From contig JAIBEK010000031.1 in NCBI GenBank assembly GCA_019459145.1, forward strand, positions 1-64,000: 64,000 bases of DNA, written 5' to 3'. This document shows, piece by piece, positions 30,393-45,256 of this stretch. The DNA comes from Arenimonas sp. Lineage in GTDB: Bacteria > Pseudomonadota > Alphaproteobacteria > Rhizobiales > Rhizobiaceae. Under the pieces are notes generated by a model, which was not told the DNA's origin, did not search any database, and saw only the letters and a list, made by a program, of their open reading frames with translations. The stretch's first letter is position 1, and every line of letters begins with the position of its first letter. The position numbers and the translations under genes were made by a program.

Positions 30393-30409
30393 TTAACTGT
30401 CCTCCGGCA

Positions 30410-31912: not shown

Positions 31913-31977
31913 GCGGGCGCAGTACGCGAACGGGGATCTCTCGCTGGCCCCGCTCATAGTTATTGTAGCCGCCTTGG

Positions 31978-32262
31978 CGATCAGCCGACCTTGCTTGTCA
32001 CCGAATACGACAAGGCATTCAGCGGGAATGGCTCGGCAACAAGATGCGCCAGAGGTGCAATGATGCCGATTTGCCGGAATGCTCGGCGCACGGCCTTAAA
32101 AAGCGTCCGCGACCATCCTGGCCGAGGCAGGCGCTACCAACTCGCCAGTTGATGGGAACCCTCGGCCACGACGACATCTCCCATGCCTAACTCTACAGCT
32201 GCGAGGCCGAACAGGAACGACTCGCGCGCGACGCCGTGACCCGCCTTACTCGCAGCATGTAG
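31978..32262 (+). pseudogene. Tyrosine integrase remnant
   Basis: The segment matches the 3' half of the intact integrase gene at 44825-45005 (PTFL.TEY.KAFSGNG, WCNDADLPECS.HGL, ATILAEAGAT with frameshifts) and then reads like a generic integrase C-terminus (LGHDDISHA, AEQERLARDAVTRL) interrupted by in-frame stops. No start or N-terminal part remains. It lies just before the att copy, as expected for an integrase of an element that used the same tRNA site. Confidence 0.85.
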
Positions 32263-32340: not shown

Positions 32341-32356
32341 TGGTGGGCCCGGAGGG
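32341..32356. repeat. Left att site: copy of the tRNA-Ile2 3' end
   Basis: TGGTGGGCCCGGAGGG is identical to 45199-45214, the CCA end and acceptor/T-stem part of the tRNA gene. It marks the junction between the decayed module on the left and the intact element on the right. Confidence 0.85.
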
Positions 32357-32509
32357 CCTGCCGAATTCCAAGAAAATCAGCAGCTTAACCCCATATGGGA
32401 CGAAGACCCCATTTTATAAAAATCAATGGCTTAGTAAAGCCGCCGTCCCACTTTTTCCGGCCGTTTCCGGCCCTTCTTTCCCGGTCGTATTGCGACCAGG
32501 GAGGGGCGC

Positions 32510-33271
32510 ATGAGCGGGGCGCGGCCATTTCGGGACGTGAAGCTGCAATGGCTTCAGCAATTGAGCTGCGACAAGGATTTGAGCGACAGCGCGCGATCCG
32601 TGGCGCTCTACATCATCACCACGCATTTGAACGGCCACACCGAGAAGGCGTGGCCGTCCTATCAAACGATTGCCGACGCAACCGGCAAGAGCGTCAAGAC
32701 CATTCAGCGCGCCGTCCGTGAACTTGAGGTCAAAGGATGGTTCGAGGTCCAGCGCGGAAATGGCATCGGGCACAACACAGAATATCGTCCCTCAGCGGCG
32801 TCGATTTTACGCGCATCGGACGCCCGCGAAAAGACGGACAAAGTTGTCACCCTTTACCCTGACAAAGGCGGTCAAAATCGTCCGGAAAGGCGGTCAGATG
32901 TGTCCAGCGAAGGGGGACAAATATGTCCACCAAACTTAGAGAAAGAAAAAATATATAAACCTAACCCGCGCGAGGACGCCCCGCCGCGCGTCGAGACGCG
33001 GCGAGCCATCCCGCTCGTTTTCGTGGCCGAAACCAAAACGGATCAGGTCGAGCAATGGCGCACCTGGTTGCGACGTCACGGCTTTCCTTCGATCGACGTC
33101 TTGGGCCTTCGAACGGCGAAAACCGGGAAGCCGGGTTATACCTTGCCGGGCTATTGGCCACCGGACGAGACAAGCCCGAATGCGCTGGATTGGATCGCTT
33201 TCTTCAGCCGCCGCCGTGACCACATTGCCGCTGAAACCGCCCGACAAACCGATCTTCGGAGAGCGTCATGA
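32510..33271 (+). CDS. Winged-helix (HTH_36) Rep-like protein
   Basis: A 253-residue protein. Residues 15-100 form a winged-helix replication-initiator-like domain (DLSDSARSVALYI, WPSYQTIADATGKSVKTIQR); the rest is polar with a C-terminal DWIAFFSRRRDH block. GGAGGGG precedes the ATG by three to nine bases. Its stop overlaps mobC (ATGA), so it belongs to the mobilization operon. Such proteins are often replication initiators or operon regulators; a role in replication of the excised circle is inference. The 153 bases upstream contain short inverted repeats (for example GGCTT-N4-AAGCC at 32428-32441) and may hold oriT. Confidence 0.75.
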   Translation: MSGARPFRDVKLQWLQQLSCDKDLSDSARSVALYIITTHLNGHTEKAWPSYQTIADATGKSVKTIQRAVRELEVKGWFEVQRGNGIGHNTEYRPSAASILRASDAREKTDKVVTLYPDKGGQNRPERRSDVSSEGGQICPPNLEKEKIYKPNPREDAPPRVETRRAIPLVFVAETKTDQVEQWRTWLRRHGFPSIDVLGLRTAKTGKPGYTLPGYWPPDETSPNALDWIAFFSRRRDHIAAETARQTDLRRAS

Positions 33272-33750
33272 CGGCTGGCGATTTGAAGGGAGCAAGGCGA
33301 CCCCTGTCATACGGCGAGCCTTCTGACGGGGAGCCTTGTGAGGGGAGGCAAGCCTCCCCTTCAAACCCCACCAAGAGCACGCGGCGATCGCCCAAAGGCG
33401 ACCTGAATGCCGTCGTGGTTTTCCGCTGCACGGCATCGGAAAAGCAGGCGCTGACCGCCCGCGCAGCGAGGGCCGGTCTGCCCTTCGCCACGCTGATGCG
33501 GGAAGCGCTTGGCCTCACCGAGGCGCGCCGCCGCCGCCCGGTTCCCAAGGTGGACCCGGAGCTGGTGCGCGCCGTCGCCCGGATTGGCGGCAACCTCAAC
33601 CAGATCGCCCGATGGCTGAACACGGCCCAGGCTCAGGGCCAGTTGTCCGCCATAGACGCAATCACGGTCGCCGCGCGCCTGGTCGCCATCGAGAGGGCGC
33701 TATCGGAAACCCTTGAGCAGTTCACGGCCAAGGATGGCGCGCCGTGCTGA
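33268..33750 (+). CDS. mobC: Relaxosome accessory protein MobC
   Basis: A 160-residue basic protein. After a disordered lead (1-45) comes a ribbon-helix-helix-like part (VVFRCTASEKQALTARAARAG) and the MobC-type block VRAVARIGGNLNQIARWLN. MobC proteins melt oriT and recruit the relaxase. The start overlaps the stop of the Rep-like gene and its 3' end overlaps mobA by 7 bases. Confidence 0.88.
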   Translation: MTAGDLKGARRPLSYGEPSDGEPCEGRQASPSNPTKSTRRSPKGDLNAVVVFRCTASEKQALTARAARAGLPFATLMREALGLTEARRRRPVPKVDPELVRAVARIGGNLNQIARWLNTAQAQGQLSAIDAITVAARLVAIERALSETLEQFTAKDGAPC

Positions 33751-35369
33751 TCAAGTTTTTCCGCAACGGCCAGGGCGGCGGATCGGAACCGGTTGACTAC
33801 CTGGTCGAGCGCGACGTCGTCGCTTACGACCAGAACCGCAACGCGACCCGCGACGAGCGCGGCGAGATCATGCTGTTTGCCCGCGAGCCTCTGCCAGAGG
33901 TGCTGCGCGGCGATGAAGACCGCATGCGCGCGCTGATCGACGCCTGCCCGCACCAGTGGACCTATCGCGCCGGCGTCATCGCCTTCACGGCGGAAGACGC
34001 GCCGAACCCTGCCCAGCAACGGCAGGTGATGGACGCCTTCGAGAACCTTGCCTTTGCCGGTCTCGAAGCCGACCAGCGCGATATGCTGTGGGTCCGCCAT
34101 ACCCATGAGGGCCGCGTCGAGCTGCATTTCGTGACGCCGCGCATGGAGCTTGCGAGCGGGCGCAGCCTCAACATCGCGCCGCCTGGCTACCAGAAGCACT
34201 ACGACGCCCTGCGCGATGTTCTGAACAAGGAACACGGCTGGAACGATCCGATGGCGCCGGAGCGCGCCCGCGAGACCGTCAGCCTCATCGAGAGCGTGCG
34301 GCGCGGCGATGCCCGCGAGCTGATCCATGACTGGATCGTCCAGCGCATCGAGACCGGCCAAATCCATGACCGCCCGAGCATGACCGAGGCTTTGACGGCG
34401 GCAGGTTTAGACCTGCCGCGCGCCGGCAAAAACTACATCACCGTGCGCGACCCCGAGACGGACGAGCGCTGGCGCCTGAAAGGAGACCTGTTCCGTGAAG
34501 ACTGGACCCGAGAGAATACCCTTGAGCGAGCGCTTGAAAGATCGGCTGGCGAGCCCAGCCGTTCCGGAAGCCGGCTCGACGCCATCGCTCCCGACGAGCT
34601 TCGGGACCGACTGGAGCGAAGCCTTGAAGCGCGCGCAAGCTACAATCGAGACCGATATCCGCAGCTTCACGGACGCGAACCGCCGGCACTTGGGCGAGGC
34701 ACTGGCGATGACCGAGGCGGAGGTGAACCGGCTCCGGTCGATGGTACAGCCATTCTTTCTGACCATGGGCGCGGTGGCGTTGCTGATCGTCCTGTTGAGC
34801 TTCACCGCGAGCTGGTTTTGGGCGGGACTGATGATCGACCGCGCCCAGAGCGCCAGCCTCTGGCAGATGGGCTTGCAGATCAACCAGACCAGCAACGGCA
34901 AGGTGCTCACCTGGGACGTCAACCGCCTTCGGCTGATCACCTGTCAGGCCGGGAGCGACAAAGCGCCATGCCTGAAAATCGTCCAGGGAGATTGACCGAT
35001 GACCACACCCACCAGACCACCGATGCCCGAGAGCCTGTCGCCGCTGGAGCGCGAATTGCTGGGTTACGTCGAGACGTTGATGAACGCATTGAGCAGCGGG
35101 ACCGCGCAATTCGAGGCGCTGGAGAAACGCTCGACAGACATGATCGAAAATCGGCAAACGGCTTTGGAAGGATCGCTGAAATCGCTCATCGCGTCACAGG
35201 CTACCTTCATGAGCGCATGGCTCGCCTCCGGCAATCCTTCCAGCGACACGGCCTCGACCGAGCTGGCGGAAGCGTTCGCCCTGCTGGAGCAAGCCGAAGC
35301 GATGCTGGAGGCGGTCGCGCCGCCGACGTAGCAGCCCGATCGCCCGCGCCCGGTCGAGGACGCGTCTGA
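33744..35369 (+). CDS. mobA: ColE1/MbeA-type relaxase (MOB-HEN family)
   Basis: A 541-residue relaxase. The N-terminus MLIKFFRNGQGGGSEPVDYL places Tyr at residue 19, the nicking tyrosine position in MbeA of ColE1, and LWVRHTHEGRVELHFVTPRM matches the MbeA metal-site region. There the H-x6-E-x-N (HEN) signature reads H119, E126 and H128, so the Asn is replaced by His. Residues 1-250 are conserved-looking; the remainder is Arg/Gly/Asp-rich because two other genes share that DNA in another frame. It nicks oriT and pilots the strand. ATG at 33744 overlaps mobC. Confidence 0.9.
   Translation: MLIKFFRNGQGGGSEPVDYLVERDVVAYDQNRNATRDERGEIMLFAREPLPEVLRGDEDRMRALIDACPHQWTYRAGVIAFTAEDAPNPAQQRQVMDAFENLAFAGLEADQRDMLWVRHTHEGRVELHFVTPRMELASGRSLNIAPPGYQKHYDALRDVLNKEHGWNDPMAPERARETVSLIESVRRGDARELIHDWIVQRIETGQIHDRPSMTEALTAAGLDLPRAGKNYITVRDPETDERWRLKGDLFREDWTRENTLERALERSAGEPSRSGSRLDAIAPDELRDRLERSLEARASYNRDRYPQLHGREPPALGRGTGDDRGGGEPAPVDGTAILSDHGRGGVADRPVELHRELVLGGTDDRPRPERQPLADGLADQPDQQRQGAHLGRQPPSADHLSGRERQSAMPENRPGRLTDDHTHQTTDAREPVAAGARIAGLRRDVDERIEQRDRAIRGAGETLDRHDRKSANGFGRIAEIAHRVTGYLHERMARLRQSFQRHGLDRAGGSVRPAGASRSDAGGGRAADVAARSPAPGRGRV
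34495..34995 (+). CDS. mobB: MobB/MbeB-like membrane mobilization protein, nested in mobA
   Basis: A 166-residue protein read in a different frame wholly inside mobA. A GTG start has AGGAGA nine bases upstream. It has a coiled-coil-like region (about 40-84), one strong membrane segment (about 87-112, MGAVALLIVLLSFTASWFW) and a periplasmic-like tail. In ColE1, mbeB is likewise nested inside mbeA and encodes a membrane-associated helper that anchors the relaxosome. Start codon, ribosome site and membrane segment together argue for real translation. Confidence 0.82.
   Translation: MKTGPERIPLSERLKDRLASPAVPEAGSTPSLPTSFGTDWSEALKRAQATIETDIRSFTDANRRHLGEALAMTEAEVNRLRSMVQPFFLTMGAVALLIVLLSFTASWFWAGLMIDRAQSASLWQMGLQINQTSNGKVLTWDVNRLRLITCQAGSDKAPCLKIVQGD
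34999..35331 (+). CDS. mobD: MobD/MbeD-like coiled-coil protein, nested in mobA
   Basis: A 110-residue acidic protein starting three bases after the mobB stop, with GGGAG nearby upstream, in the same frame as mobB and still inside mobA. It is mostly helical (ESLSPLERELLGYVETLMNAL, ELAEAFALLEQAEAML), like MbeD of ColE1-type plasmids, which begins with a similar SPLE-rich N-terminus and is involved in mobilization or entry exclusion. It ends 38 bases before the relaxase stop. Confidence 0.75.
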   Translation: MTTPTRPPMPESLSPLERELLGYVETLMNALSSGTAQFEALEKRSTDMIENRQTALEGSLKSLIASQATFMSAWLASGNPSSDTASTELAEAFALLEQAEAMLEAVAPPT

Positions 35370-35397
35370 TTATCATTTCCGCCTGGAGTTTCGAGCC

Positions 35398-37248
35398 ATG
35401 AATTTCATCATTCAGCCCTATCGCTATGCCCTTTCCATCGCCGTCGTGGCCGCCGGTTTCCTGCTGATGGAAACCGCGCCGTTGTTCTGGCCACCCATCT
35501 ACCAAAACGCGCGCGCCGCGATCCTGGTCATGTTCTGCGGGTTTGCGCTGCTGACCTTGGCGGGAGACACTCAGGGCCGCATCCGCAGCGCGTCGGGCTT
35601 AGCTGTGGGGGCTGCCCTCCTTGCCGCGTCTGCTCTCGCCCTTACCGACCCGACCATTGCGGCAGGCTTCCTGCTCGACAGCTTCAAGGCTTGGCGCAAC
35701 GCCGGCTATTCCGGAATCGAGAGCATACGAGGCATGGTATCGACCTGGGATCGTTTCACAGAGGCGCAGAAGCTTGGCCTGCAAACCAGCCTCGCCATCG
35801 GCCTGCCTGTGCCGCTGTTCCTCATTCTGCGGGCAATTTCGATTGCCGCCCCGGCATCTTCGAGCCGCATTTCCAAACAAGGCCCATGGCGCGCCCGATG
35901 GATGAACCGCCAGGAGTTGCGCCAACTCCGGCACAACGACACCGGCTTGCCGCTCGGTCTCTCCGGCGGCGCAATGCTGCGCTACCGCCCCAACCCGAAG
36001 ACCGGATGGCGCGCCGGCCACCATGTCGCCATCGCCGGCACACGCGCCGGAAAAGGCGTGTCCGTCGTCATTCCCGCCATCATTGACCATGATGGGCCGG
36101 TCGCGGTCCTCGACATCAAGGGCGAAAACTTCGCCGTGACCCGCCGCTATCGCCGATCGCTCGGCCGCCAAGTTGTGGTTCTCAATCCCTTCGGCGTCAT
36201 CGAACCGTCGAAGGATCGTTTCAATCCGCTCGACTATATCCGGCAAGCGCACCTAGTCCGCGACATCGAGGTCATTGCCGAAGGGCTTGTTCGACCGGAA
36301 GGCGGAAACGGCGCGCACTTCGCCGAAATGGCGAAATCCATGATTGCCGTCGTGATCGAGGTCGTCATGAGCAGGCGCGAGGAAGCCGATCGTAACCTGA
36401 TCACGGTCATGGACCTGCTGTTTTCCGCCGGCTTTGAAGAGACACTGACGGAATGGGCCGGAGCGCCGGAGACCTTCGGTACCCGCCCGGCCGCCGCCGC
36501 AGCCACCTTCCTTGCAGCGGGCGAGAACGAGCGCGGCGCGATTAAAACCACGATCAAGAAGGCCTTCGATTGGGCGCGTTCCGACGAGCTGCGCAGTTTC
36601 CTCAGCGCATCCACATGCTCGCTCGAAAACCTTTTCGAGGGCCGCGCCGATCTCTTCATGGTGGTCCCGCTCGACCAGGTGGACGCCCAGGCCGTCTTTC
36701 TCCGGCTGCTGACAAACATCATTCTCGGCATGGCCGTGCGCCTTGAAGGCGTAAAGAAGCCGAAACGGAACGTGCTGCTCGTCCTGGACGAGTTTGTTCG
36801 CCTCGGTCGCATGGAAAAGCTGATCAACATCGCAAACGTCGCCGCCGGCTGCGGCATCGAGGCGTTATTCATCACCCAGGACAAGGGCCAAATCGAAAGC
36901 GTCTATGGCAAGGGCGACACCGCCAGTATTCTCGGCTCATGCGTCACCACCCGCATTTTCGGTCTCGGCCGCGCCGAGTTCGAAACCGCCAATTGGGCCG
37001 CGAACGCCCTTGGCGATCAGACGGTGCTCACCCGCACGAAGCAATCGTCCGCGAAGTTCGGCGAGAGCCGCAAGACCTCGACCGCCGAACAGCGCCAGAA
37101 GCTCATGACCGCCGATCAGATCCTGGAAATGAAGACCGGCAAGATGCTGCTGCTGATGGGGTCGAAACCTCCCGCGCTGGTTGACGCGATCGTGTCGCAT
37201 CGGCATCCGGCATATAGGGGGAAGCTGGACCGGAATCCGATGGTGTGA
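35398..37248 (+). CDS. traG: Type IV coupling protein (VirD4/TraG family)
   Basis: A 616-residue coupling ATPase. Three or four membrane segments lie in the first 150 residues; Walker A AGTRAGKGVS is at 213-222 and Walker B VLLVLDEF with DE at 464-465, followed by VRLGRMEKLINI and FITQDKGQIE typical of TraG/VirD4. It couples the relaxase-DNA complex to a conjugation channel. ColE1-like plasmids do not carry their own coupling protein, so its presence directly after the mob genes is notable. Confidence 0.93.
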   Translation: MNFIIQPYRYALSIAVVAAGFLLMETAPLFWPPIYQNARAAILVMFCGFALLTLAGDTQGRIRSASGLAVGAALLAASALALTDPTIAAGFLLDSFKAWRNAGYSGIESIRGMVSTWDRFTEAQKLGLQTSLAIGLPVPLFLILRAISIAAPASSSRISKQGPWRARWMNRQELRQLRHNDTGLPLGLSGGAMLRYRPNPKTGWRAGHHVAIAGTRAGKGVSVVIPAIIDHDGPVAVLDIKGENFAVTRRYRRSLGRQVVVLNPFGVIEPSKDRFNPLDYIRQAHLVRDIEVIAEGLVRPEGGNGAHFAEMAKSMIAVVIEVVMSRREEADRNLITVMDLLFSAGFEETLTEWAGAPETFGTRPAAAAATFLAAGENERGAIKTTIKKAFDWARSDELRSFLSASTCSLENLFEGRADLFMVVPLDQVDAQAVFLRLLTNIILGMAVRLEGVKKPKRNVLLVLDEFVRLGRMEKLINIANVAAGCGIEALFITQDKGQIESVYGKGDTASILGSCVTTRIFGLGRAEFETANWAANALGDQTVLTRTKQSSAKFGESRKTSTAEQRQKLMTADQILEMKTGKMLLLMGSKPPALVDAIVSHRHPAYRGKLDRNPMV

Positions 37249-37267
37249 TCGTTTAGCGAAGGTCGTT

Positions 37268-37582
37268 TTACTTCCATAAAATTGTGACCCTTCCAATCAG
37301 CGGAGCCATCACTTCCAATCTGCCGACGTCTACGCCAATATTGGTATCCTGATCATGGTAGCTCACAAGGAGCAAAACCTGCGGCAGGAGAACTACTAGC
37401 ACCTTCGCGCGCGTGAAGCCCCTTCCGCCCGCAAACGGTTCCTCGCGAGAGAGCTTGACGCTTACCACCCGCTGTTCGCCTCGAGGTATAAGTGATGGGG
37501 CACTCCGCTTGCTATCTTTTGCGAAGAATCCGGTGAGTAAGCCAAGCCGTCCATTCCACCACAACTCAGAATCGCCCAGCAT
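37268..37582 (-). CDS. Doubtful small ORF in a 364-base gap
   Basis: A possible 104-residue protein with a hydrophobic stretch (KVLVVLLPQVLLLVS). Its start lies 30 bases from the divergent PLD gene. There is no clear ribosome-binding site and no family that I recognise. The gap 37249-37612 otherwise shows nothing but the probable promoter region of the PLD gene, so this frame may be non-coding. Confidence 0.25.
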   Translation of the reverse strand: MLGDSELWWNGRLGLLTGFFAKDSKRSAPSLIPRGEQRVVSVKLSREEPFAGGRGFTRAKVLVVLLPQVLLLVSYHDQDTNIGVDVGRLEVMAPLIGRVTILWK

Positions 37583-37612
37583 CCCCGAATTGCAATCCGA
37601 TTCGGGGCGACG

Positions 37613-38812
37613 ATGGCTACCAAGGAATTCATTTTACAAGGTTTTACGGCGCGCACGCATAAGGACGCTATACGCGAGCTGTTTGAGGTGGACGACATCA
37701 AGAGCGTGCTGGTCAGCGTGGCCTATATGAGTGAGAGCGGCATCGAGCCACTTGAAGACCTTTTCACGAAGCACGCGCCACTGCTGACAGTGTTTGCAGG
37801 CATCCGAAATGACGTGACCTCCTATCAGGGGCTGATGAAGATACACGGGATTGCCGGAAGCACCCTTTATGCCGTCGATACAGGCTCCAGAACGGTCGTC
37901 TTCCATCCCAAGCTCTACTTAGTGCGGGGCGCGAAGGAAGTGCGGCTTGTTATGGGTAGCGCCAACCTCACCCTTGGCGGCCTGAACAACAACATCGAAG
38001 CTGGCATGCTGTTCAAGTTCGACCTGGGCGAGGCCGAAGACTTGAAGGTGGTGGCAGAAATCGAGTCACAGCTGCTCGCGCTGCCCAACGATTACGTCGA
38101 GCATATCCTGCTCATGGACGATCCGGCCAAGATCGAAGACCTTAAAATCAACGGGCGCGTTACGGATGAGCTTTCCGTGCCTCCTCCCCGTCCATCTACG
38201 TCATCGGGCGGGAAGAGCGGCAGTGACCCGGTTCCTCGCATCAAGCTCAAAACCACGCCGATGCACCGCAGGCTTCGCGCAGCACGACCGGCGAAAGCGC
38301 CTGTTGCTGCCGTTGCGGCACCAGCTGCGAGTGCAGCTCCGGTGGTTGTCCCACCAGCAGCAGCGCCAGCGACGGGCGTTGTCCTCGACCTGATGTGGGA
38401 ATCCAAGCCACTTACCGAGCGCGACCTCAATATCCCTACTGGCACGAACACGAACAAGACCGGCTCGATCAATCTGGACAAAGGCCTGCTACCCGAAGCG
38501 GAAGACCACCGGCCGTATTTCCGTGCCAAGGTATTCGATGCCTTAAACTGGACGTATCGCTCACCGACGGTGGATGAAGCATGGGGCCAGTTTCAGCTCG
38601 TTCTAAAAGGTGTAAGTCATGGGGTGTTCGATTTGGTCGTGCGCCATACCAACAGCACCACCTCAAAATCATACCTGCAAAACAACGCGATGACACGCGT
38701 TAGCTGGGGTCCGATGCGCGATTATGTGGCAGACCCGAGCCTTATCGGCCGCACGCTGGCACTGTATCGGGACAAGGCTGACCCGACACAGTTTGTCATC
38801 GAGATCGACTAA
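37613..38812 (+). CDS. PLD-family restriction-endonuclease-like protein 1
   Basis: A 399-residue protein in three parts. Residues 1-190 are a phospholipase D-type nuclease: FHPKLYLVRG (H98, K100) and MGSANLT (115-118) form one HxK...GSxN active site, so a dimer would be needed for two. Residues 190-255 are a Pro/Ala-rich linker. Residues 256-399 are a second domain (LMWESKPLTERDLN, YFRAKVFDALNW, TRVSWGPMRD, FVIEID) that resembles the C-terminal, B3-like DNA-recognition part of NgoFVII/BfiI-type enzymes and is shared with the protein at 40851. The 3' end overlaps the convergent methyltransferase gene by four bases. Confidence 0.82.
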   Translation: MATKEFILQGFTARTHKDAIRELFEVDDIKSVLVSVAYMSESGIEPLEDLFTKHAPLLTVFAGIRNDVTSYQGLMKIHGIAGSTLYAVDTGSRTVVFHPKLYLVRGAKEVRLVMGSANLTLGGLNNNIEAGMLFKFDLGEAEDLKVVAEIESQLLALPNDYVEHILLMDDPAKIEDLKINGRVTDELSVPPPRPSTSSGGKSGSDPVPRIKLKTTPMHRRLRAARPAKAPVAAVAAPAASAAPVVVPPAAAPATGVVLDLMWESKPLTERDLNIPTGTNTNKTGSINLDKGLLPEAEDHRPYFRAKVFDALNWTYRSPTVDEAWGQFQLVLKGVSHGVFDLVVRHTNSTTSKSYLQNNAMTRVSWGPMRDYVADPSLIGRTLALYRDKADPTQFVIEID

Positions 38813-40458
38813 GCCTCTTCGGCCAGAGGCTCGCTTGAAGTGCGGTGGCGGCGGTCACGAAGGCTCCGCCACCCTTCCAATACACGGTGCTGGTCGTCAC
38901 GGGACAGACCGAGGGCGCCGAGGATGATACGGCCCTGCCGCTCAAGCACACGATGGGTTGGCAATGACCGGATGGCCTTATCCAAATCCACCAAATCAAT
39001 TTCAGCCCGTTCCGACAGCGGAATAAGCAGCTTCTCAATCTCAGACGGAACCAGCTCCAGTACGCCGCCGCCATAGTGGCGACCTTCCAGCTCCGCGCTC
39101 AGCGCCGTCAATGGATTGATGAAGGAGCCCACGAGCTTTTCAGCGACAACCTTGCTCGTGCGGATGCGGTAGGCTGTATCGGTGGTGTAGGCGCCGATGG
39201 TGTTGAGGATGAGCCGTGGTGTGTCATGCGAGCGTTTGAGCATGCCGATCTCAGTGGAGTAGACCGAGGGCACCGTATACCAAGGTTTTCTAATGCGGCA
39301 TTTATAGCGGGTGTGAAGGTTTTCCGCCTCACCCATCGCAATGTAGCTCCTTGCGGTGGAATGAAGGACTTCCTGCTTGTCGTTGAACCAAAGGAAATTC
39401 GTCGGATTTCCTTTGGCCGAATTCGCCTTGTGCTGTCGTTCGTCATAAATGACACCGGGGCAGTGTTCGCTACGGCCGAACATGGGATGCGCCCATTTGC
39501 CGAGCTTGTAATCCTTAACCGTCTCATCCGGCACGAGGAAAAACTTGTTCGCACCGGTGACAATGCCGACATCGACCTTCGCGATATCCTTGAAGCGGTG
39601 GACCTCATCGAGATCGCCCAACTGGTCGAACAGCGAGCGGGTGTCCACGCCGAGGAGGGCGCGCGTCCACTTACCCTGCACCGTTTTGCCGTTGATAGCC
39701 TTGGGAGCTTCGAACACGTCGGTCGGGTTGATGTCGATGAATTCACGGCCCTTAACCGTGTACATGCCTAAACCTTCAGCCTTCTCCGCCTCGTCTGCGC
39801 GCTTCTCCGCCATCAGGATGACAGCACCCTGCAACGTGTCAGCAAACCAAAGCTCTTCGGGGTCGATGATGACAAGGCGGCGGCATTCACGGCCGAGGTA
39901 CGACCGGAGCGACTGCGCATGGGTGACGTGAATAATTTCAGCCGGCACGACCATGGCCAAACGGCCACCGGGGCGAAGCATCGACATGGACGCAAGGATA
40001 AACGGTACCCACGCGTTCGTGTGCTTCGTGAACGGAAGTTCCAGCTCACGGAAAATCTGCTCGGAACGCTGCTGGAAGATTTCCGGAAGATATTGGTAGC
40101 GGACGAACGGAGGATTTCCCACGACTGCATCGAACTTGTCGCGGGCATTTTTCCTGTGGTCGATAGCCCAACCAAGGAAATCTTCAGCGTGAATCTCCGC
40201 CTGGATTCCTACGTCGGATGCACGCGCCTTAGCCTTCTTCGCCTCGACCTGATCCAACTCGAATCCTGTAACCTTGGCCTTTTCGAATCCTTCCACGGCC
40301 GCAAGTGCGCCAAGGAAAACGCCGTCGCCGCAGCTTGGCTCAAGGACTCGTTTCGGGGAGATTTCCTTGACCCATCGAGCAATAAACGCAGCCAAGTCCG
40401 AAGGGGTGTAATAACCGCCTCGGAGTTTCTGGGCGCTCTCATTTTCCATAAAATTCAT
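38809..40458 (-). CDS. N6-adenine DNA methyltransferase, gamma class (TaqI/Eco57I-like)
   Basis: A 549-residue methyltransferase. Motif X GGYYTP (14-19), AdoMet-binding motif I LEPSCGDGVF (about 39-48) and catalytic motif IV NPPF (about 114-117) come in this order, followed by a long target-recognition part with a TaqI-like C-terminus. This is the gamma arrangement of type IIS/IIG-type adenine methylases. No nuclease motif is seen within it. It sits between two PLD nuclease genes and presumably protects host DNA from them. Transcribed leftwards; starts MNFMENES at 40458. Confidence 0.92.
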   Translation of the reverse strand: MNFMENESAQKLRGGYYTPSDLAAFIARWVKEISPKRVLEPSCGDGVFLGALAAVEGFEKAKVTGFELDQVEAKKAKARASDVGIQAEIHAEDFLGWAIDHRKNARDKFDAVVGNPPFVRYQYLPEIFQQRSEQIFRELELPFTKHTNAWVPFILASMSMLRPGGRLAMVVPAEIIHVTHAQSLRSYLGRECRRLVIIDPEELWFADTLQGAVILMAEKRADEAEKAEGLGMYTVKGREFIDINPTDVFEAPKAINGKTVQGKWTRALLGVDTRSLFDQLGDLDEVHRFKDIAKVDVGIVTGANKFFLVPDETVKDYKLGKWAHPMFGRSEHCPGVIYDERQHKANSAKGNPTNFLWFNDKQEVLHSTARSYIAMGEAENLHTRYKCRIRKPWYTVPSVYSTEIGMLKRSHDTPRLILNTIGAYTTDTAYRIRTSKVVAEKLVGSFINPLTALSAELEGRHYGGGVLELVPSEIEKLLIPLSERAEIDLVDLDKAIRSLPTHRVLERQGRIILGALGLSRDDQHRVLEGWRSLRDRRHRTSSEPLAEEA

Positions 40459-40850
40459 TTTATCACTCGACTCGCCGTGGGAACTTCATCGCTAGAAATA
40501 GCGGCAGTTCCTTGTCCGAAACGTACAACTACGCGGCTACACGGGAGGCTGCGGAGCAACCCGTGGAGAGGACGTTTATAGGATTCACGAGAGTCCGGGG
40601 TCAACCCGATACAAGGTTTCGATAGGAAAATAATTCTGCATGCCCCCCCTGTGTGTGATTAGTCGCATCACGCTCACCCCATAAGATCACCCCATAAGGC
40701 ATGAGTCCTTTGCAGCATCTTGCCAGCGCAGATCTAGGTCCGCAAAGGAAATGTACGCTCAAAGGACTCGCGGTCACGGAAAAAGAGGCGACATCCATGC
40801 TCGCCTACCTTCCTCTTGCAGGTGAGCGGCTTCATCCCGCTCGCTTGGCT
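40459..40850. other. 392-base gap between methyltransferase and second nuclease genes
   Basis: No convincing gene. Short frames on both strands (40701-40934 plus, 40601-40798 minus) lack ribosome sites and family likeness. The gap holds a 12-bp direct repeat TCACCCCATAAG at 40674-40685 and 40687-40698, one base apart. It is large enough for a promoter of the methyltransferase gene, and the repeat could be a regulator site. Confidence 0.5.
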
Positions 40851-42125
40851 CTAAGCGACGTCATCGATATCGATCAAAAAGCCACCCTCTTCGTCACCTT
40901 CGTAAAGCGACAAGGTTGCGCCCTCGATGTTTAAGTCTTGAATCAAGGGGGTGAGCTGGCGCCCCCATCGTAGAATGGTGGTGTAATTGTCTTGGCCTGC
41001 CTCCCCTGAGGGCTTGTGTCCTATCTCGAAGTTATGCACGCCATAGTCCCGACCACGAATGGTTAGCCGCATGGGGACGAACGTATGTTCTTGATCAGAC
41101 GCCCTCTTTCGCCCCGTTTCCTGCTCCCACTCGTAGTCAGAAAATAGCTGTCGAAAATATTGGGTTTGGTCAATGAGGCCCCCGTGCGGGCTTTCGAATT
41201 TGGCCTGCGTCAGACGGACCCCTCCAACATGCTTGCTCCCTGGATTCACCTGTAGCGCATCTGTGGCAGGCAACACCTTTCGCCAAACCAGAGCGCCGGT
41301 CACGCCTGCCACTACCGGCGTCGGCGCCGTAGTCAGGGGCTCAGGAGGCGCCTTGATGCCCGGCGCGTCGTGATCTCTGAGGTGTTTAGGAAGAAGTGGC
41401 GGCGAAGGCGGCGCCTGTGCTGTAAAGGGGTTTGGCGGTAGCGGTCCTTCACTTTTGGATGTTCGGCGTGCGTCCCGCTTTCGACGCCGCACCTCTACTT
41501 CGGTTGGCAGATCACCGCGCTGACTCAGAACATTTATCAACGCCTTCGTAAGTTTTTTTACTAAATCTCCTTCTTTTGGTTCCATTAAATCTGCCACGGG
41601 GGAAACAAATTTTTTCAGGACACTTAATTCTGCTGGGAGCTTAAATCTGTACTTTGATGCCACTTCGTAGTTTGTGTAGAATCCGCCGTCAGTCAAATTA
41701 TTTGAGCCGACGAAAAGTGTTGCGTCTTTCTTCTTCTCAATGAGGTATATTTTTGGATGAAATGTTGATCGTGGATTTGGATTATGGAAAACGTAGCTGT
41801 CGCAGCTCCATAACATTATTTCCTCAAGTGTTTCCTTACTGGTTCCGCCCAAATCTATCCCAACGATAATTTTGACAGACGCCCCTTCTTCTTTATGAAA
41901 TAGCACAATGTCGCGTAGTCTTAAAACGGATCTAAGCGCAACAAAAGCCGATACAAAAACTATTTTTCGAACGTCTTCGTTTTCATCCAGCAATTCGTGA
42001 AGTTGGCTGCCAAGTTGCTTTACTGGCTGGTATACAAGTACGCTTTTCATCCAAATATCCGTATCTATGTTCAAGTCCCGCCCTCTTGGATAGATTGAGT
42101 CTATAGTCGCGGTGAAGCGGTTCAT
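40851..42125 (-). CDS. PLD-family restriction-endonuclease-like protein 2
   Basis: A 424-residue protein with the same plan as that at 37613: PLD nuclease part (about 30-200) with FHPKIYLIEK (H123, K125) and VGSNNLTDGG (140-143), a Pro-rich linker (about 215-280) and a C-terminal domain (285-424: WRKVLPATDALQ, GGVRLTQAKF, QYFRQLF, ILRWGRQL). That domain follows the pattern of the B3-like recognition domain in NgoFVII-type enzymes. The first part (41500-42125) is AT-richer than the rest of the window. ATG at 42125 has no strong ribosome site; M26 at 42050 is an alternative. Confidence 0.82.
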   Translation of the reverse strand: MNRFTATIDSIYPRGRDLNIDTDIWMKSVLVYQPVKQLGSQLHELLDENEDVRKIVFVSAFVALRSVLRLRDIVLFHKEEGASVKIIVGIDLGGTSKETLEEIMLWSCDSYVFHNPNPRSTFHPKIYLIEKKKDATLFVGSNNLTDGGFYTNYEVASKYRFKLPAELSVLKKFVSPVADLMEPKEGDLVKKLTKALINVLSQRGDLPTEVEVRRRKRDARRTSKSEGPLPPNPFTAQAPPSPPLLPKHLRDHDAPGIKAPPEPLTTAPTPVVAGVTGALVWRKVLPATDALQVNPGSKHVGGVRLTQAKFESPHGGLIDQTQYFRQLFSDYEWEQETGRKRASDQEHTFVPMRLTIRGRDYGVHNFEIGHKPSGEAGQDNYTTILRWGRQLTPLIQDLNIEGATLSLYEGDEEGGFLIDIDDVA

Positions 42126-42164
42126 TTCGCAACCATTACAATTAACTTTGAAAGTTCAATTCTT

Positions 42165-42458
42165 TCATGAATCGCCGGAGTACGGCGCGTTTGGAACCAA
42201 GCCAACTTTGAATCCGAAGAGCCGGCCGATCTTTGTCAATGTCCCAAGCGTAGGATTCGCTGAGCCAGCCTCAATCTCGGCGATCTGCCTGCGCGTAAGG
42301 CCGAGGATTTTTGCGAATTCTTCCTGCGACATCCCTATACCTTTACGGAGTTCTGCGACGGCTTCAGGCAAGTGTAGATCGCCGCGGCGCGCGCGCTCCG
42401 CAAGCGTTCGCCTGTTCTCAAGGATTTCATCTTTCGTGGGCTTCTTCCAGCGAGCCAT
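42165..42458 (-). CDS. HipB-like XRE antitoxin (copy 2)
   Basis: A 97-residue homologue of the protein at 30111, with the same MARWKKPTKDEILENRRTL lead and an HTH (GMSQEEFAKILGLTRRQIAE). It is intact although its toxin gene upstream is reduced to a remnant ending three bases before this start. It may act as a free repressor or as an antidote for the intact HipA encoded at 30410. Confidence 0.85.
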   Translation of the reverse strand: MARWKKPTKDEILENRRTLAERARRGDLHLPEAVAELRKGIGMSQEEFAKILGLTRRQIAEIEAGSANPTLGTLTKIGRLFGFKVGLVPNAPYSGDS

Positions 42459-42461
42459 ACG

Positions 42462-42623
42462 TCAGCAATGCTGGGGCATAGCGAACATGCCATCAACCAT
42501 GAAGCTATCGAGATCGCAATCGACGATCGACGCGCCCTGAAAGCCGACCGCGTCGTCCTTGAGTTCTAGCGTCGCGGCGTGATGCCACTCGCCATTAAAA
42601 TGGGTTTGGAGCGTTAGGCGCAT
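42462..42623 (-). pseudogene. hipA remnant (internal deletion)
   Basis: Codons 1 to about 38 match the start of the intact hipA (MRLTLQTHFNGEWHHAATLE with few changes), then the frame jumps to a short tail (FMVDGMFAMPQHC) and stops. About 1.2 kb, including the whole kinase core, is missing. The remaining 53 codons cannot encode an active toxin. Confidence 0.85.
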
Positions 42624-42810
42624 TAATTGACCCTTTAAACGGTTCAAATAATTCATTTTTCAAGTCATTCAACCCATCAAAATGGGTTGAATGACTGCCG
42701 TTAGAACTGCCAGCTACCGAAGCGGTCATTGAAGCTTCTGATCCGGCTGACCATCTTCCGACCACGCAACGCATTGCCGCAAGCGAACAGCATGAGGGAG
42801 AGGCTCAGCA
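42508..42810. repeat. Diverged copy of 31617-31912
   Basis: Right-hand copy of the hipA 5' region repeat, in direct orientation to the left copy. Here the membrane-protein gene that it overlaps is intact. Confidence 0.85.
42667..42692. promoter_or_regulatory. Candidate HipB operator (copy 2)
   Basis: ATTCAACCCAT-CAAA-ATGGGTTGAAT, perfect 11-bp arms around four bases, 44 bases upstream of the hipA remnant and directly downstream of the membrane-protein gene. The absence of a T run argues against a terminator. Confidence 0.55.
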
Positions 42811-43054
42811 CAGGTGTCAACCAAGCATCGGAGTCGCTTTTCCCATCAAACACAATGAGCAGAACAGCCCCCATCGCCGCGAAGAAGATCATTCCGAAGT
42901 CGTATTGCTTTGAAAGGCTCGCGAGCCGGGCCGAATGTTGGGCATAGCGCAATTGCCTTGCCAACTTTCGCTTTTCGGATGCCAATTGATCGCGCTGGCG
43001 CCCGATCGCGTAAAAACCCTGCTCGATTTTCTGTTCAAAGCTCGACTTACTCAT
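42701..43054 (-). CDS. Small membrane protein with N-terminal coiled coil
   Basis: A 117-residue protein: a charged helical part (1-50, RQRDQLASEKRKLARQLRYA), two membrane segments (about 53-70 and 78-95) and a basic tail. The start overlaps the stop of the CI-like repressor (ATGA), so the two are co-translated. I do not recognise the family. A role in repressor control or superinfection exclusion would fit the position but is only inference. Confidence 0.72.
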   Translation of the reverse strand: MSKSSFEQKIEQGFYAIGRQRDQLASEKRKLARQLRYAQHSARLASLSKQYDFGMIFFAAMGAVLLIVFDGKSDSDAWLTPVLSLSLMLFACGNALRGRKMVSRIRSFNDRFGSWQF

Positions 43055-43494
43055 ATTGCTGACCTCAGATATTTCTCTGCAATTTCCTCTGTGAATTCGC
43101 CGTGTTGCTCGGCGTAGTCGATCAGGAACCGGATGAGCTTCAAGCGCTTGTCCGGTTCCACCTGACAGTTTTCCCGCACGATAAAGGCATCAACTTGGTT
43201 CGTGACCTCGTGATACAGATCGACCGTGTCTCGATTGTAGGGGCTGCCTTCCCCGGTCATCATCCAGACTGGATTGACGTGGAACTTCGTGTAGAGCGCG
43301 CGCAGCACGCGAACGGGTATCTCTCGCTGGCCGCGCTCATAGGTATTGTAGCCGCCTTGGGAGACCTCAAGCGCTTCCGCAAACGGGATCTGTTTCAATC
43401 CCGAGTTTTCCCGGATCATCGCCAAACGTTTGCCCATCTGAATGAGAAGCGTGTCTTGCGCTGAGTTATTATTTTTCTGATAATCGCGTTGCAT
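43051..43494 (-). CDS. CI-like XRE family repressor
   Basis: A 147-residue regulator with an N-terminal HTH (about 20-75: MGKRLAMIRENSGLKQIPFA, VSQGGYNTYERGQREIP) and a helical C-terminal part without a LexA-type peptidase. An internal start at 43437 (MGKRL) is possible. Divergent from the excisionase-like gene, with a candidate operator between, it probably keeps the element integrated and silent. Confidence 0.85.
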   Translation of the reverse strand: MQRDYQKNNNSAQDTLLIQMGKRLAMIRENSGLKQIPFAEALEVSQGGYNTYERGQREIPVRVLRALYTKFHVNPVWMMTGEGSPYNRDTVDLYHEVTNQVDAFIVRENCQVEPDKRLKLIRFLIDYAEQHGEFTEEIAEKYLRSAI

Positions 43495-43507
43495 CTTTGA
43501 GCTTGAT

Positions 43508-43531
43508 GTGATTCTTTCGTGTTCGTATCAC
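43508..43531. promoter_or_regulatory. Candidate repressor operator between cI-like and xis-like genes
   Basis: GTGAT (43508-43512) and ATCAC (43527-43531) are inverted around 14 bases in the only 65-base gap between the divergent repressor and HTH genes. The position is ideal for control of the excision switch; the arms are short. Confidence 0.35.
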
Positions 43532-43559
43532 TCTATCATCAGTTGGAGGTGAATTTCCA

Positions 43560-43778
43560 ATGCAGGCGCAACTCTTGTCACCCAAACAGCTCGCAGACCG
43601 TTCTGGATGGCCGGTCGCACGCATCCGCAATCTGATCGCAAAGCAGGAAATCCGTCATGTCCGGATTGGCGGAAGCCTGTTCCTGCCGGAAAACGCAGTG
43701 GATGAGTATCTTGCGGCGAATATGGTCGAGCCCAAGCAGAAGGCTTTGACGCTTGTTGATAGCGCCTCCAGAGCGTGA
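43560..43778 (+). CDS. Excisionase-like helix-turn-helix protein
   Basis: A 72-residue MerR/Xis-type winged-helix protein (LLSPKQLADRSGWPVARIRN, HVRIGGSLFLPENAVDEYL). GGAGGTG lies upstream of the ATG. Small proteins of this kind bend att DNA for integrase-driven excision. First gene of the rightward xis-int run. Confidence 0.82.
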   Translation: MQAQLLSPKQLADRSGWPVARIRNLIAKQEIRHVRIGGSLFLPENAVDEYLAANMVEPKQKALTLVDSASRA

Positions 43779-43788
43779 GGAGCGGCAC

Positions 43789-44055
43789 ATGAAGCAGCAA
43801 GCAGAAGCGCCGGTCCCACGCCCAATTTACAAGGTCGCGGTCAGCCGCGTCCGTGCGGCGGAACTTCTCGACGTCTCGACGGGCACCTTTGACGACTGGG
43901 TTCGCCGTGGCCTTATGCCGAAAGGCGTAAAGATCGGCGCGTTGCGCCGTTGGGATGCCGAGGAAATCCGGGCGTCCTGGTACGACATCAAAGAACAAGG
44001 GTTGAGTGGAGACGAAGACGATGGCGAAAACCCGTTTGATCACGCGGTTGGGTAG
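43789..44055 (+). CDS. Second small HTH protein (AlpA/excisionase type)
   Basis: An 88-residue protein with a MerR-like helix-turn-helix (RVRAAELLDVSTGTFDDWVR, LRRWDAEEIRASW). GAGGAG precedes the ATG at 43789. It overlaps the integrase start by 35 bases, so translation is coupled. It may act with the first HTH protein as excision directionality factor or activate integrase expression. Confidence 0.78.
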   Translation: MKQQAEAPVPRPIYKVAVSRVRAAELLDVSTGTFDDWVRRGLMPKGVKIGALRRWDAEEIRASWYDIKEQGLSGDEDDGENPFDHAVG

Positions 44056-45256
44056 CCAGCGCGTCCCCTTTAAATTCTGCTCACGGGATGTCGATCGGCA
44101 TGGCAATGAGCGGTTCTATCTCCGCCTGCCAGGCATGCCGAAGTACCGGATGACGTCCGCGTATCTGGACGAGGCCGGCAGCGTCACCCAGGCGTTTACC
44201 GAGGAATATCAACGCGTGCTGGCTGGTGATCGTGGTGAAAAGACCATACCGATTTCACGACTGGAGCCCGGCTCGGTTAGCTGGCTGGTCGAGACCTATT
44301 ATCGCTCCAAGGCGTTTCAAAGCCAGTCTCCGGCCACGCAGAAAGACAAGAAGAGCGTTCTCAATCGCTACTGCAGCAATGTGGGCGAGTTGCCCTTCAA
44401 GAAGATCCGCAAATCAGACATTGATGCCAGCCAGATGAAGCGTAGCGGCACGCCCGGCGCGGCTGACAAGTTGGTGAAGTATCTGAAGGCGCTGTTCAAT
44501 TGGGCTATCAGCGCCGAGCTGGCGACGTTCAACCCCGCGAATGGCGTGACCAAAATCCACAAGTCGCCAGGTTTCCACACCTGGAGCGAAGCGGAGCTGG
44601 CGCGCTATCGCGCAGCCTATCCGCTCGGCTCGATGGCCCGGCTTGCAATGGAGCTAATGCTGAATTTGGGCGTCAGACGCTCCGATCTCGTCAAGCTCGG
44701 TTGGCGCAACCTGGTAGGAGACCGTATCGAATTCATGCCGGAGAAGGGCTCCGGCAAATATGCACAGTCGCTCAGCCTGCCCGTTACAGACGAGCTCCGC
44801 GAGGCACTGGACGCGATTACACATGATCAGCCGACCTTCCTTATTACCGAATACGGCAAGGCGTTCAGCGGGAACGGCTTCGGCAACAAGATGCGCCAGT
44901 GGTGCAACGATGCCGATTTGCCGGAATGTTCGTCGCACGGCCTGAGAAAGGCGTCCGCGACCATCCTCGCCGAGGCAGGTGCTACCGAACATCAGTTGAT
45001 GGCGATCTTCGGCTGGTCTGATTCCAAGATGGCCCAGCACTACACGAAAGCCGCCCAGTCCAAGCGGATTATCGATGCCGGTTTCGAGCGTCGGAAAACC
45101 TACGTGGCCCGTAAAAATGTCCCACTTTCATCGAGCCGGAATTCCGGTGAGACAAATCGAGGAAAAAATGATGGAAAAACAACGTCCGAAGACAGAAATG
45201 GTGGGCCCGGAGGGACTCGAACCCCCAACCAAGCGGTTATGAGCCGCCGGCTCTAA
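44021..45256 (+). CDS. Tyrosine recombinase (integrase) of the element
   Basis: A 411-residue site-specific recombinase. SAM-like core-binding domain (about 85-175), catalytic residues R219 (LGVRRSDLVKL), H306-x-x-R309 (SSHGLRK), W332 and nucleophile Y341 (AQHYTKAA). Start MAKTRLITRL at 44021. The last about 18 codons (GPGGTRTPNQAVMSRRL) run antisense through the tRNA gene and are not part of the fold, so the chromosomal attachment changes the protein tail. It integrates and excises the element at the tRNA-Ile2 gene. Confidence 0.93.
   Translation: MAKTRLITRLGSQRVPFKFCSRDVDRHGNERFYLRLPGMPKYRMTSAYLDEAGSVTQAFTEEYQRVLAGDRGEKTIPISRLEPGSVSWLVETYYRSKAFQSQSPATQKDKKSVLNRYCSNVGELPFKKIRKSDIDASQMKRSGTPGAADKLVKYLKALFNWAISAELATFNPANGVTKIHKSPGFHTWSEAELARYRAAYPLGSMARLAMELMLNLGVRRSDLVKLGWRNLVGDRIEFMPEKGSGKYAQSLSLPVTDELREALDAITHDQPTFLITEYGKAFSGNGFGNKMRQWCNDADLPECSSHGLRKASATILAEAGATEHQLMAIFGWSDSKMAQHYTKAAQSKRIIDAGFERRKTYVARKNVPLSSSRNSGETNRGKNDGKTTSEDRNGGPGGTRTPNQAVMSRRL
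45199..45214. repeat. Right att site within the tRNA 3' end
   Basis: The 16 bases are identical to 32341-32356 and include the encoded CCA, discriminator and acceptor stem, so integration regenerates a complete tRNA. Confidence 0.85.

What the first reader, a model, noticed from the sequence alone, without database searches (positions are those of the whole stretch)
37613..42125. Two same-plan PLD nucleases flank one adenine methyltransferase: a possible two-nuclease restriction system
Seen: both outer proteins have an HxK...GSxN phospholipase D site, a Pro-rich linker and a similar C-terminal domain (W.K.L...D, YFR..F....W, .W G..., ending F.I.ID). The middle gene is a gamma-class N6 methylase with NPPF. 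Known: BfiI and NgoFVII/NgoAVII-type enzymes combine a PLD nuclease with a B3-like DNA-reading domain, and PLD nucleases act as dimers with one shared active site. Inference: the two nucleases may form a heterodimer, or each read one strand of an asymmetric site, with a single methylase as antidote. No helicase like N.NgoAVII is present. The opposite orientation of nuclease 1 and its 4-base convergence with the methylase is also unusual.
Basis: partly seen in the sequence, partly recalled or inferred. Interest (0 to 1): 0.72.

Follow-up and report, generated by a model that had tools for sequence, protein, structure and literature searches.

The report
Two nucleases sharing one broad methylase
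A mobile DNA element carries a DNA-cutting and DNA-protecting gene pair plus a second, related cutter without a protector of its own, probably because the one protector marks a wide set of sites and can shield the cell from both cutters.

Summary
The three genes are real. PLD1 (37613-38812) and the methylase (38809-40458) are a recurrent tail-to-tail restriction-modification pair: in 17 other loci with a PLD nuclease gene beside this methylase, all 17 are convergent, 11 share the 4-base overlap, and none has a second full PLD nuclease. So the obligate two-nuclease idea fails as a family rule, and the 'unusual' orientation is usual. PLD2 (40851-42125) is a sister subtype (reading domain B, not A) with different base composition; in two loci a type-B nuclease is the only one beside the same methylase family. 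The methylase is M.Eco57I-type (Pfam 8.7e-101); published M.Eco57I has degenerate CTNNAG specificity. Around this methylase PLD-A, PLD-B and Eco57I-like type IIG nucleases swap (one pair of loci: methylase 78% identical, nuclease 32-35%). Best reading: an umbrella methylase shields two independent PLD nucleases in the cargo slot of a 12.9-kb integrative mobilizable element in tRNA-Met. One distant locus (L055) shows a similar stack: type-A nuclease plus a stand-alone type-B reading domain. Shared protection, targets and any heterodimer are untested; a silent or decayed PLD2 is the main rival.

The parts
37613..38812 (+). PLD1, type-A PLD restriction nuclease (R); 399 aa
   Evidence: catalytic H98/K100/N118/E129; best fold match BfiI, Z 20.4, 2.5 A, 176 residues; SauUSI Z 19.2
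37613..38167 (+). PLD1 catalytic PLD domain (residues 1-185)
   Evidence: Model mac6f2ca926ce
38384..38809 (+). PLD1 C-terminal reading domain, subtype A (residues 258-399)
   Evidence: CTD HMM 8.4e-59; no Pfam, PADLOC or PHROG family for the domain; Foldseek alignments to BfiI and NgoAVII R run through it
38809..40458 (-). M.Eco57I-type gamma-class N6-adenine methylase (M), 549 aa
   Evidence: Pfam M_Eco57I_C 8.7e-101, Eco57I 2.8e-14; PADLOC MTase_II 1.4e-193, residues 1-539
40459..40850 (.). 392-bp spacer between M and PLD2; no recognisable methylase or nuclease remnant and no RHH-like short ORF before M
40851..42125 (-). PLD2, type-B PLD nuclease, 424 aa; translation may start at M26 (42050), because the first 25 residues have no counterpart in relatives
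   Evidence: GC 49.7%, GC3 0.508 against 0.665/0.678 for PLD1/M; SauUSI Z 22.0, BfiI Z 18.9
41511..42050 (-). PLD2 catalytic PLD domain (residues 26-205), H123/K125/N143/E154
40863..41294 (-). PLD2 C-terminal reading domain, subtype B (residues 278-421)
   Evidence: CTD HMM 5.5e-36; 40% to the stand-alone CTD of L055, 38% to L053, 31% to L012
37246..42190 (.). Cargo slot of the mobile element that holds the three genes; approximate borders
   Evidence: Sister element L072 matches up to 37245 (VirD4) and again in the first 89 residues of HTH1 (84%), with a different R-M gene set in between
32341..45214 (.). Host integrative mobilizable element: 16-bp repeat 32341-32356 and 45199-45214 (tRNA-Met 3' end), MobC, relaxase, VirD4, cargo, regulators, Xis-like HTH protein, integrase

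Best explanation
The core is a two-gene type II restriction-modification system: PLD1 (R, type-A reading domain) and a convergent M.Eco57I-type methylase. PLD2 is a second, independent PLD restriction nuclease of sister subtype B, added to the same cargo slot without its own methylase. Each nuclease most likely works as a BfiI-like homodimer: two PLD domains make one active site, two C-terminal domains read DNA. The cell tolerates PLD2 because the single methylase has degenerate (CTNNAG-like) specificity and so covers the targets of both nucleases, which are equal or different subsets of the methylated set. Shown: gene set, domains, active-site residues, convergence, one-nuclease relatives, exchange of partners around a conserved methylase, the mobile cargo slot. 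Inferred: degenerate target of this methylase (by homology to M.Eco57I), shared protection, homodimers, activity of PLD2.
For: (1) In 17 of 17 loci with a PLD nuclease gene beside this methylase (window excluded) the pair is convergent and no second full PLD nuclease lies in the fetched flanks. (2) In 2 of these 17 the only nuclease is type B: L053 (M 61% to the window's) and L012/L038/L075 (49%). (3) L028 (type A) and L053 (type B): methylases 78% identical (recognition region 76%), nucleases 35% PLD / 32% CTD, so M was kept while R differs. (4) The methylase family also partners Eco57I-like IIG enzymes (L039, L040, L041), whose M genes form a clade with those of PLD-linked L008 and L055 (support 1.00). 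(5) Published M.Eco57I specificity CTNNAG, both strands (passages of PMC3874165). (6) PLD2 composition differs from PLD1+M. (7) PLD2 is an uninterrupted frame with the four catalytic residues. (8) L055: type-A nuclease plus adjacent stand-alone type-B reading domain beside one M. (9) Slot with a different R-M gene set in sister element L072.
Against: No direct evidence that this methylase is CTNNAG-specific: it is 54% identical to the methylase of L040, which I take for Eco57I-like from gene layout and recall. Type B as the only nuclease rests on two loci. No other locus with two full PLD nucleases was found, so the arrangement is unique in the sample and may be a passing state. R genes of this family are broken in several loci (L020, L025, L051, L052), so PLD2 could be silent too. 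PLD2 is a divergent type B, 31-40% identical to other type-B CTDs, so its target may differ. The consensus scan shows no promoter-like site in front of PLD2, though it found fewer sites than shuffled sequence and is uninformative.
Confidence: 0.5

Rival explanations
1. PLD2 is a silent or decaying leftover of a second R-M system whose methylase was lost; only PLD1+M works.
For: Broken nuclease genes beside these methylases recur: L020 (IS66 genes between parts of R), L051 (PLD part missing), L052 (CTD fragment), L025 (truncated R, methylase split too). Two full nucleases are unique in the sample.
Against: PLD2 is an intact 424-aa frame with the catalytic residues at BfiI spacing. No methylase remnant in the 392-bp spacer (best of 54 queries E 0.008, a short match of a reading domain).
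Confidence: 0.23
2. PLD1 and PLD2 form a heterodimer with one composite PLD active site and two different reading domains (a PLD version of type IIT enzymes such as BbvCI).
For: Same domain plan, 24% identity, close to BbvCI R1/R2 (about 27%, passages of PMC6326814). In BfiI, R.CglI and R.NgoAVII two PLD domains dimerise into one active site (passages of PMC4267653). L055 also combines A- and B-type readers beside one M.
Against: 0 of 17 homologous loci have two full nucleases; both subtypes occur alone with M. The two genes lie on opposite strands with the methylase between them and differ in composition.
Confidence: 0.14
3. PLD2 is a separate defence nuclease (for example methylation-dependent or damage-activated) unrelated to the methylase; its closeness is due only to the defence-collecting slot.
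For: PLD2's PLD domain matches SauUSI better than BfiI (Z 22.0 against 18.9); L072's slot holds other R-M genes; proteins related through the PLD domain occur with other methylases or none.
Against: PLD2's reading domain is subtype B, found elsewhere as that of the only nuclease beside M.Eco57I-type methylases (L053, L012). It has no SauUSI-like helicase part.
Confidence: 0.1

Closest known systems
BfiI (type IIS, PLD; ACTGGG)
   Same: N-terminal PLD nuclease with H-K-N-E at identical spacing and a C-terminal DNA-reading domain; first or second fold match for PLD1 and PLD2 in the VIA lists; ATP-independent, no helicase partner (passages)
   Different: BfiI has two independent methylases, one per strand (table footnote, PMC4267653); here one M.Eco57I-type methylase. 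No sequence match between the C-terminal domains
NgoAVII / CglI (PLD-B3 R-protein + helicase-like N-protein + C5 methylase)
   Same: PLD plus C-terminal reading domain; R.NgoAVII aligned over both domains but with large rmsd (13-16 A), that is another relative orientation
   Different: No helicase/ATPase gene in the cargo; adenine instead of cytosine methylase
Eco57I-type systems (type IIG RM + M.Eco57I, CTGAAG 16/14)
   Same: Same methylase family, convergent layout in L039-L041, short ORF in front of M in L039 and L040 as in many PLD-linked loci
   Different: Nuclease partner is a ~400-aa PLD enzyme, here two, instead of a ~1000-aa R-M fusion
Type IIT enzymes with two subunits (BbvCI, BtsI)
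   Same: Two related nuclease genes at one locus (BbvCI; passages)
   Different: There the two subunits act together (BbvCI holds equal numbers of both; BtsIA alone is inactive, abstract start); here relatives routinely have one nuclease
DISARM DrmC
   Same: Weak PLD-domain similarity (NCBIfam E 1.4e-4, 21.4 bits, cut-off 133)
   Different: Far below cut-off; no other DISARM genes in the slot

Membership tests
Type II restriction-modification system (PLD1 + M) | Separate nuclease and methylase genes, adjacent in many genomes | tested here: met
   17 loci besides the window, all convergent
Type II restriction-modification system (PLD1 + M) | Nuclease and methylase act on the same sequence | not testable with these tools
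   Needs methylome and cleavage assay
BfiI-type PLD restriction enzymes | HxK, N, E active site in an N-terminal PLD fold | tested here: met
   Both proteins; spacing +2, +20, +31 as in BfiI; BfiI Z 20.4 and 18.9
BfiI-type PLD restriction enzymes | C-terminal B3-like DNA-binding domain | tested here: inconclusive
   Foldseek alignments to BfiI (425 and 422 columns) and R.NgoAVII (460 and 463) span it, with rmsd of 16-21 A over the whole; no sequence-profile match; domain not folded alone
BfiI-type PLD restriction enzymes | Homodimer with one metal-independent active site | not testable with these tools
   Biochemistry needed
BfiI system | Two methylases, one per strand | tested here: not met
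   One methylase in the slot
NgoAVII/CglI systems | DEAD/Z1 helicase-like N-protein gene | tested here: not met
   The slot holds the three genes only; no helicase family among the element's 12 proteins scanned
M.Eco57I-type methylases | Gamma-class m6A catalytic domain plus M.Eco57I C-terminal domain | tested here: met
   PF22837 8.7e-101 over positions 1-276 of 283; NPPF
M.Eco57I-type methylases | Degenerate CTNNAG specificity, both strands | not testable with these tools
   Published for M.Eco57I; not measured here
Two-subunit type IIT restriction enzymes | Two nuclease subunits inherited together | tested here: not met
   0 of 17 homologous loci have a second full nuclease
DISARM (DrmC) | DrmC above cut-off with its companion genes | tested here: not met
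   21.4 and 14.5 bits against 133; only the three genes in the slot

The most novel reading that the evidence does not exclude
PLD1 and PLD2 exchange protomers, so a single composite PLD active site is steered by two different reading domains (A and B), all under one umbrella methylase with degenerate specificity: a restriction enzyme that needs two different sites, or whose set of targets is widened by mixing subunits. L055 (type-A nuclease plus stand-alone type-B reader) would be a second form of the same idea.
Probability: 0.13. Interest if true: 0.8.

Novelty: new variant of a known kind. Interest (0 to 1): 0.5.

Why it matters
A restriction enzyme normally cannot change its target without a matching change in the methylase. 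A methylase with a degenerate target loosens that lock. This family looks like a natural case: the methylase stays while PLD-A, PLD-B and Eco57I-like nucleases come and go, and here two nucleases sit under one methylase. It makes directly testable whether a broad 'umbrella' methylase lets mobile elements swap and stack restriction specificities. It also points to a C-terminal reading domain with no family in the Pfam, PADLOC and PHROG copies searched, in two subtypes, that occurs with and without its nuclease.

Tried and rejected
HTH1 (42165-42458) as control protein of PLD2: rejected as the likeliest reading; it is also present in sister element L072 (84% over 89 residues), beside a different R-M gene set, and resembles HipB-type antitoxins (TIGR03070, 2.3e-10 but under its cut-off).

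A lost methylase of PLD2 in the 40459-40850 spacer: a first tblastn was read only in part; repeated in full with 54 methylase and nuclease sequences, best E 0.008, a short match of a reading domain on the minus strand, which I take for chance.

A second methylase of this family in the same genome: one match at E <= 1e-60, the window's own. A third reading domain: none at E <= 1e-4.

Insertion repeats around PLD2: only short repeats, none convincingly flanking it.

Phages and viral contigs: no match for PLD2 among 50,697 phage records at 1e-5, none for the methylase at 1e-60, none for the L055 reading domain at 1e-3; single-sequence viral scans with PLD1 and PLD2 found nothing, alignment scans did.

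CTD against solved structures by sequence profile: one match at E 0.84, an antibody chain, taken for chance. Pfam, PADLOC and PHROG: only single-member matches at E 0.018 or worse.

Heterodimer modelling was not available. Columns that differ by CTD subtype lie at 264-300 and 351-360 in PLD1 numbering and may be DNA-contact arms, but I drew those segments after seeing the result, and B3-arm labels are recall. dN/dS of the stand-alone CTD of L051 against L053 (0.04) has saturated synonymous changes and is not lineage-specific; not used.

What the '17 loci' are: L001-L008, L019, L020, L048/L050, L049/L054, L053/L068, L055/L066, L012/L038/L075, L014/L037/L076, L028/L077, each contig counted once. 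They were picked for having a PLD nuclease gene beside a methylase of this family, so they do not measure how often either gene stands alone. L020's nuclease is split by IS66 and is counted as one (broken) nuclease. Dropped before the count: the window; loci with the methylase but no such nuclease gene (L025, L027, L051, L052: remnants or CTD only); IIG-linked loci (L039-L047); further methylase loci with no PLD or CTD match (L056-L058, L060-L062); PLD-domain relatives without this reading domain (L013, L021-L024, L026, L029, L033 and others, and for the seven aligned there); and L059, which has PLD and reading domain beside a methylase of about 35% identity, but head-to-head: with it, convergence is 17 of 18. 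Flanks seen beyond the pair on the methylase's start side, where PLD2 lies in the window, run from 1.8 kb (L053) to 5.9 kb (L077); PLD2 in the window's position would need about 1.7 kb. Flanks on the nuclease side are shorter in some loci (137 bases in L006).

Paper look-up for the Eco57I gene sequences (Janulaitis 1992) was not held. That L040 is Eco57I-like by layout (62-aa ORF, 541-aa M, 998-aa R, 69 bp between the 3' ends) agrees with what I recall of that abstract; this is recall. Passages of PMC11779793 describe LlaJI, where R1 gives specificity and R2 cuts, as another two-R precedent.

Full report
CHECK OF THE OBSERVATION. Single-sequence Pfam hits of PLD1 and PLD2 are weak: PLDc_2 3.4e-4 and 2.9e-7, RE_NgoFVII 0.0028 and 0.0052. 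But their catalytic residues keep BfiI's spacing: H, K at +2, N at +20, E at +31 (BfiI numbers from passages of PMC4081073). AlphaFold models (mean pLDDT 77.6 and 73.8) place both PLD domains on BfiI: Z 20.4, 2.5 A, 176 residues for PLD1 (SauUSI Z 19.2), and Z 18.9, 2.9 A, 179 residues for PLD2, whose best match is SauUSI at Z 22.0, 2.2 A, 168 residues. The two C-terminal domains share W, YFR, F, W, G, H, Q, N, T, W and are found by one HMM at 8.4e-59 and 5.5e-36, both sequences having been among those that built it. The models give them a similar order of strands and helices.

THE TWO-GENE CORE. A pattern scan of the genome collection with PLD1 returned 8 loci (patterns from one sequence reach close relatives only). 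In 8 of 8, PLD1's relative is convergent with a methylase 54-76% identical to the window's, and 0 of 8 have a PLD2. These 17 were picked for having both genes. All 17 are convergent; 11 overlap by exactly 4 bases (L001-L007, L019, L020, L048, L053). By reading domain 15 are type A and 2 (L012, L053) type B. An HMM scan for PLD domain, reading domain and methylase finds no second full PLD nuclease in the fetched flanks of any of the 17 (flank lengths). In 1 of 17 (L055) a stand-alone type-B reading domain lies just upstream of the type-A nuclease gene on the same strand. L020 has a detached PLD fragment that belongs to its own IS66-split nuclease. One further locus, L059, has the PLD and reading domains beside a methylase of only about 35% identity, in head-to-head order.

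PLD2. In sampled genomes PLD2's relatives are rare: 7 of 385 class genomes, 7 of 398 phylum genomes and 6 of 297 order genomes match at E <= 0.001, the window's own genome included each time and several through the PLD domain only. Its reading domain belongs to subtype B, with L012, L053, L051 and the stand-alone domain of L055, at 31-40% identity; the CTD tree groups these five (support 0.93). L053 and L012 are one-nuclease loci with the same methylase family. Base composition sets PLD2 apart: GC 49.7%, GC3 0.508, against 57.0%/0.665 for PLD1 and 56.7%/0.678 for the methylase. Its first 25 residues have no counterpart in relatives, so translation may start at 42050.

THE METHYLASE AND WHY IT MATTERS. 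The methylase is an M.Eco57I-type enzyme (PF22837, 8.7e-101). PMC3874165 (passages) states that M.Eco57I has degenerate specificity CTNNAG, methylates both strands of CTGAAG, and that the need for this methylase confines change in Eco57I to the central 2 bp. The same family partners Eco57I-like ~1000-aa enzymes on an E. coli and an Acinetobacter plasmid (L040, L039; 54% to the window methylase). In the methylase tree the IIG-linked M genes L039-L041 form a clade with those of PLD-linked L008 and L055 (support 1.00), and the M genes of type-B-linked L053 and L051 form one with that of type-A-linked L028 (support 1.00). L028 and L053 have methylases 78% identical (recognition region 76%) but nucleases only 35% (PLD) and 32% (CTD) identical. 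So the nuclease is the exchangeable part. This is the main ground for thinking that one such methylase can shield against an A-type and a B-type nuclease at once. It is inference: no target was measured.

A short ORF of 55-81 aa stands directly before M in 10 of 14 PLD-linked loci examined for it, window not counted (L001-L005, L007, L008, L048, L049, L055; not in L006, L019, L020, L053), and a similar one before M of IIG-linked L039 and L040. That of L001 matches ribbon-helix-helix families (RHH_1 5.1e-5); the 62-aa ORF of L040 matches no Pfam family, so a regulator role for that second kind is inference. The window has only an unrelated-looking 49-aa frame there. PLD-linked and Eco57I-linked systems thus seem to share a core of methylase plus small ORF.

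THE CARRIER. The genes sit in an integrative mobilizable element of about 12.9 kb: a 16-bp repeat at 32341-32356 and 45199-45214 (tRNA-Met 3' end), MobC, relaxase, VirD4, two XRE-type regulators, a small protein without a Pfam family, a small HTH (Xis-like) protein and tyrosine integrase. A sister element, L072 (VirD4 97%, integrase 92% over the part on the contig), shares the sequence up to VirD4 and again from HTH1 onward, but its slot holds an RHH-like protein, two C5 methylases, an Mrr-type and an HNH-type protein. L073 and L074 (VirD4 96-97%) carry other genes downstream of VirD4; HTH1 and integrase were not found in the stretches held, L073 ending at its contig end. VirD4 at E <= 1e-150 occurs in 3 of 40 genomes of the genus, own genome included.

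MECHANISM. Most likely: the methylase marks a degenerate site set on host DNA; unmarked incoming DNA is bound by the reading domains of PLD1 or PLD2 dimers and cut by the single shared PLD site, as in BfiI (passages of PMC4081073, and PMC4267653). PLD2 without its own methylase would be expected to harm the host unless it is inactive, silent, blocked by this methylase, protected by another methylase, or dependent on a modified target. The comparative data favour shared protection, but do not prove it.

WHAT IS KNOWN AND NOT. Seven searches of the paper library, for PLD restriction nucleases, Eco57I, CTGAAG, CTNNAG and two nucleases with one methylase, listed no title or abstract start that reports a PLD nuclease with an M.Eco57I-type methylase. 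Only passages of five papers were read; many R-M papers are outside that library and REBASE was not available. PMC4081073 (passage) says that a REBASE search found over 40 putative enzymes with the PLD catalytic residues and probably different organisations, so single pairs of this kind may be listed there. The CTD has no family in Pfam, PADLOC or PHROG.

VERDICT. A recognisable PLD-type restriction system in a new variant: M.Eco57I-type methylase as partner, and a second nuclease stacked beside it.

Noticed in passing
L055 7886-8326 (also L027 5001-5435, L034 1480-1986, L051 6587-7033): The C-terminal reading domain occurs as a stand-alone protein of about 144-168 aa; in L055, L027 and L051 it lies beside an M.Eco57I-type methylase. 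It may be a functional DNA binder or a nuclease remnant.
   Followed up: partly
L072 9934-14812: The sister element's cargo slot holds an RHH-like protein, two C5 cytosine methylases, an Mrr-type nuclease and an MTaX1-HNH protein: again two nuclease-like genes in one R-M cargo.
   Followed up: partly
window 30119-32155: Left of the 16-bp repeat lies a relic of a related element: a copy of HTH1 (73% at DNA level), a HipA kinase gene (30410-31732) and fragments matching the regulator and integrase regions (87-92%), suggesting an older tandem insertion; HTH1 may be an orphan HipB-type antitoxin.
   Followed up: partly
L020, L025, L051, L052: Nuclease genes are broken (IS66 genes in L020, recombinase region in L025, PLD part replaced in L051, fragment in L052) beside methylase genes that are uninterrupted except in L025, where an IS1380 splits it.
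   Followed up: partly
L001 8837-9079, L040 3823-4011 and others: A short ORF directly before the methylase in many PLD-linked and two Eco57I-like systems, RHH-type in L001 and possibly in the rest; not seen in the window.
   Followed up: partly
L073 4346-7546: Downstream of VirD4 in another sister element: two adjacent proteins without Pfam matches and a D12-class adenine methylase.
   Followed up: no
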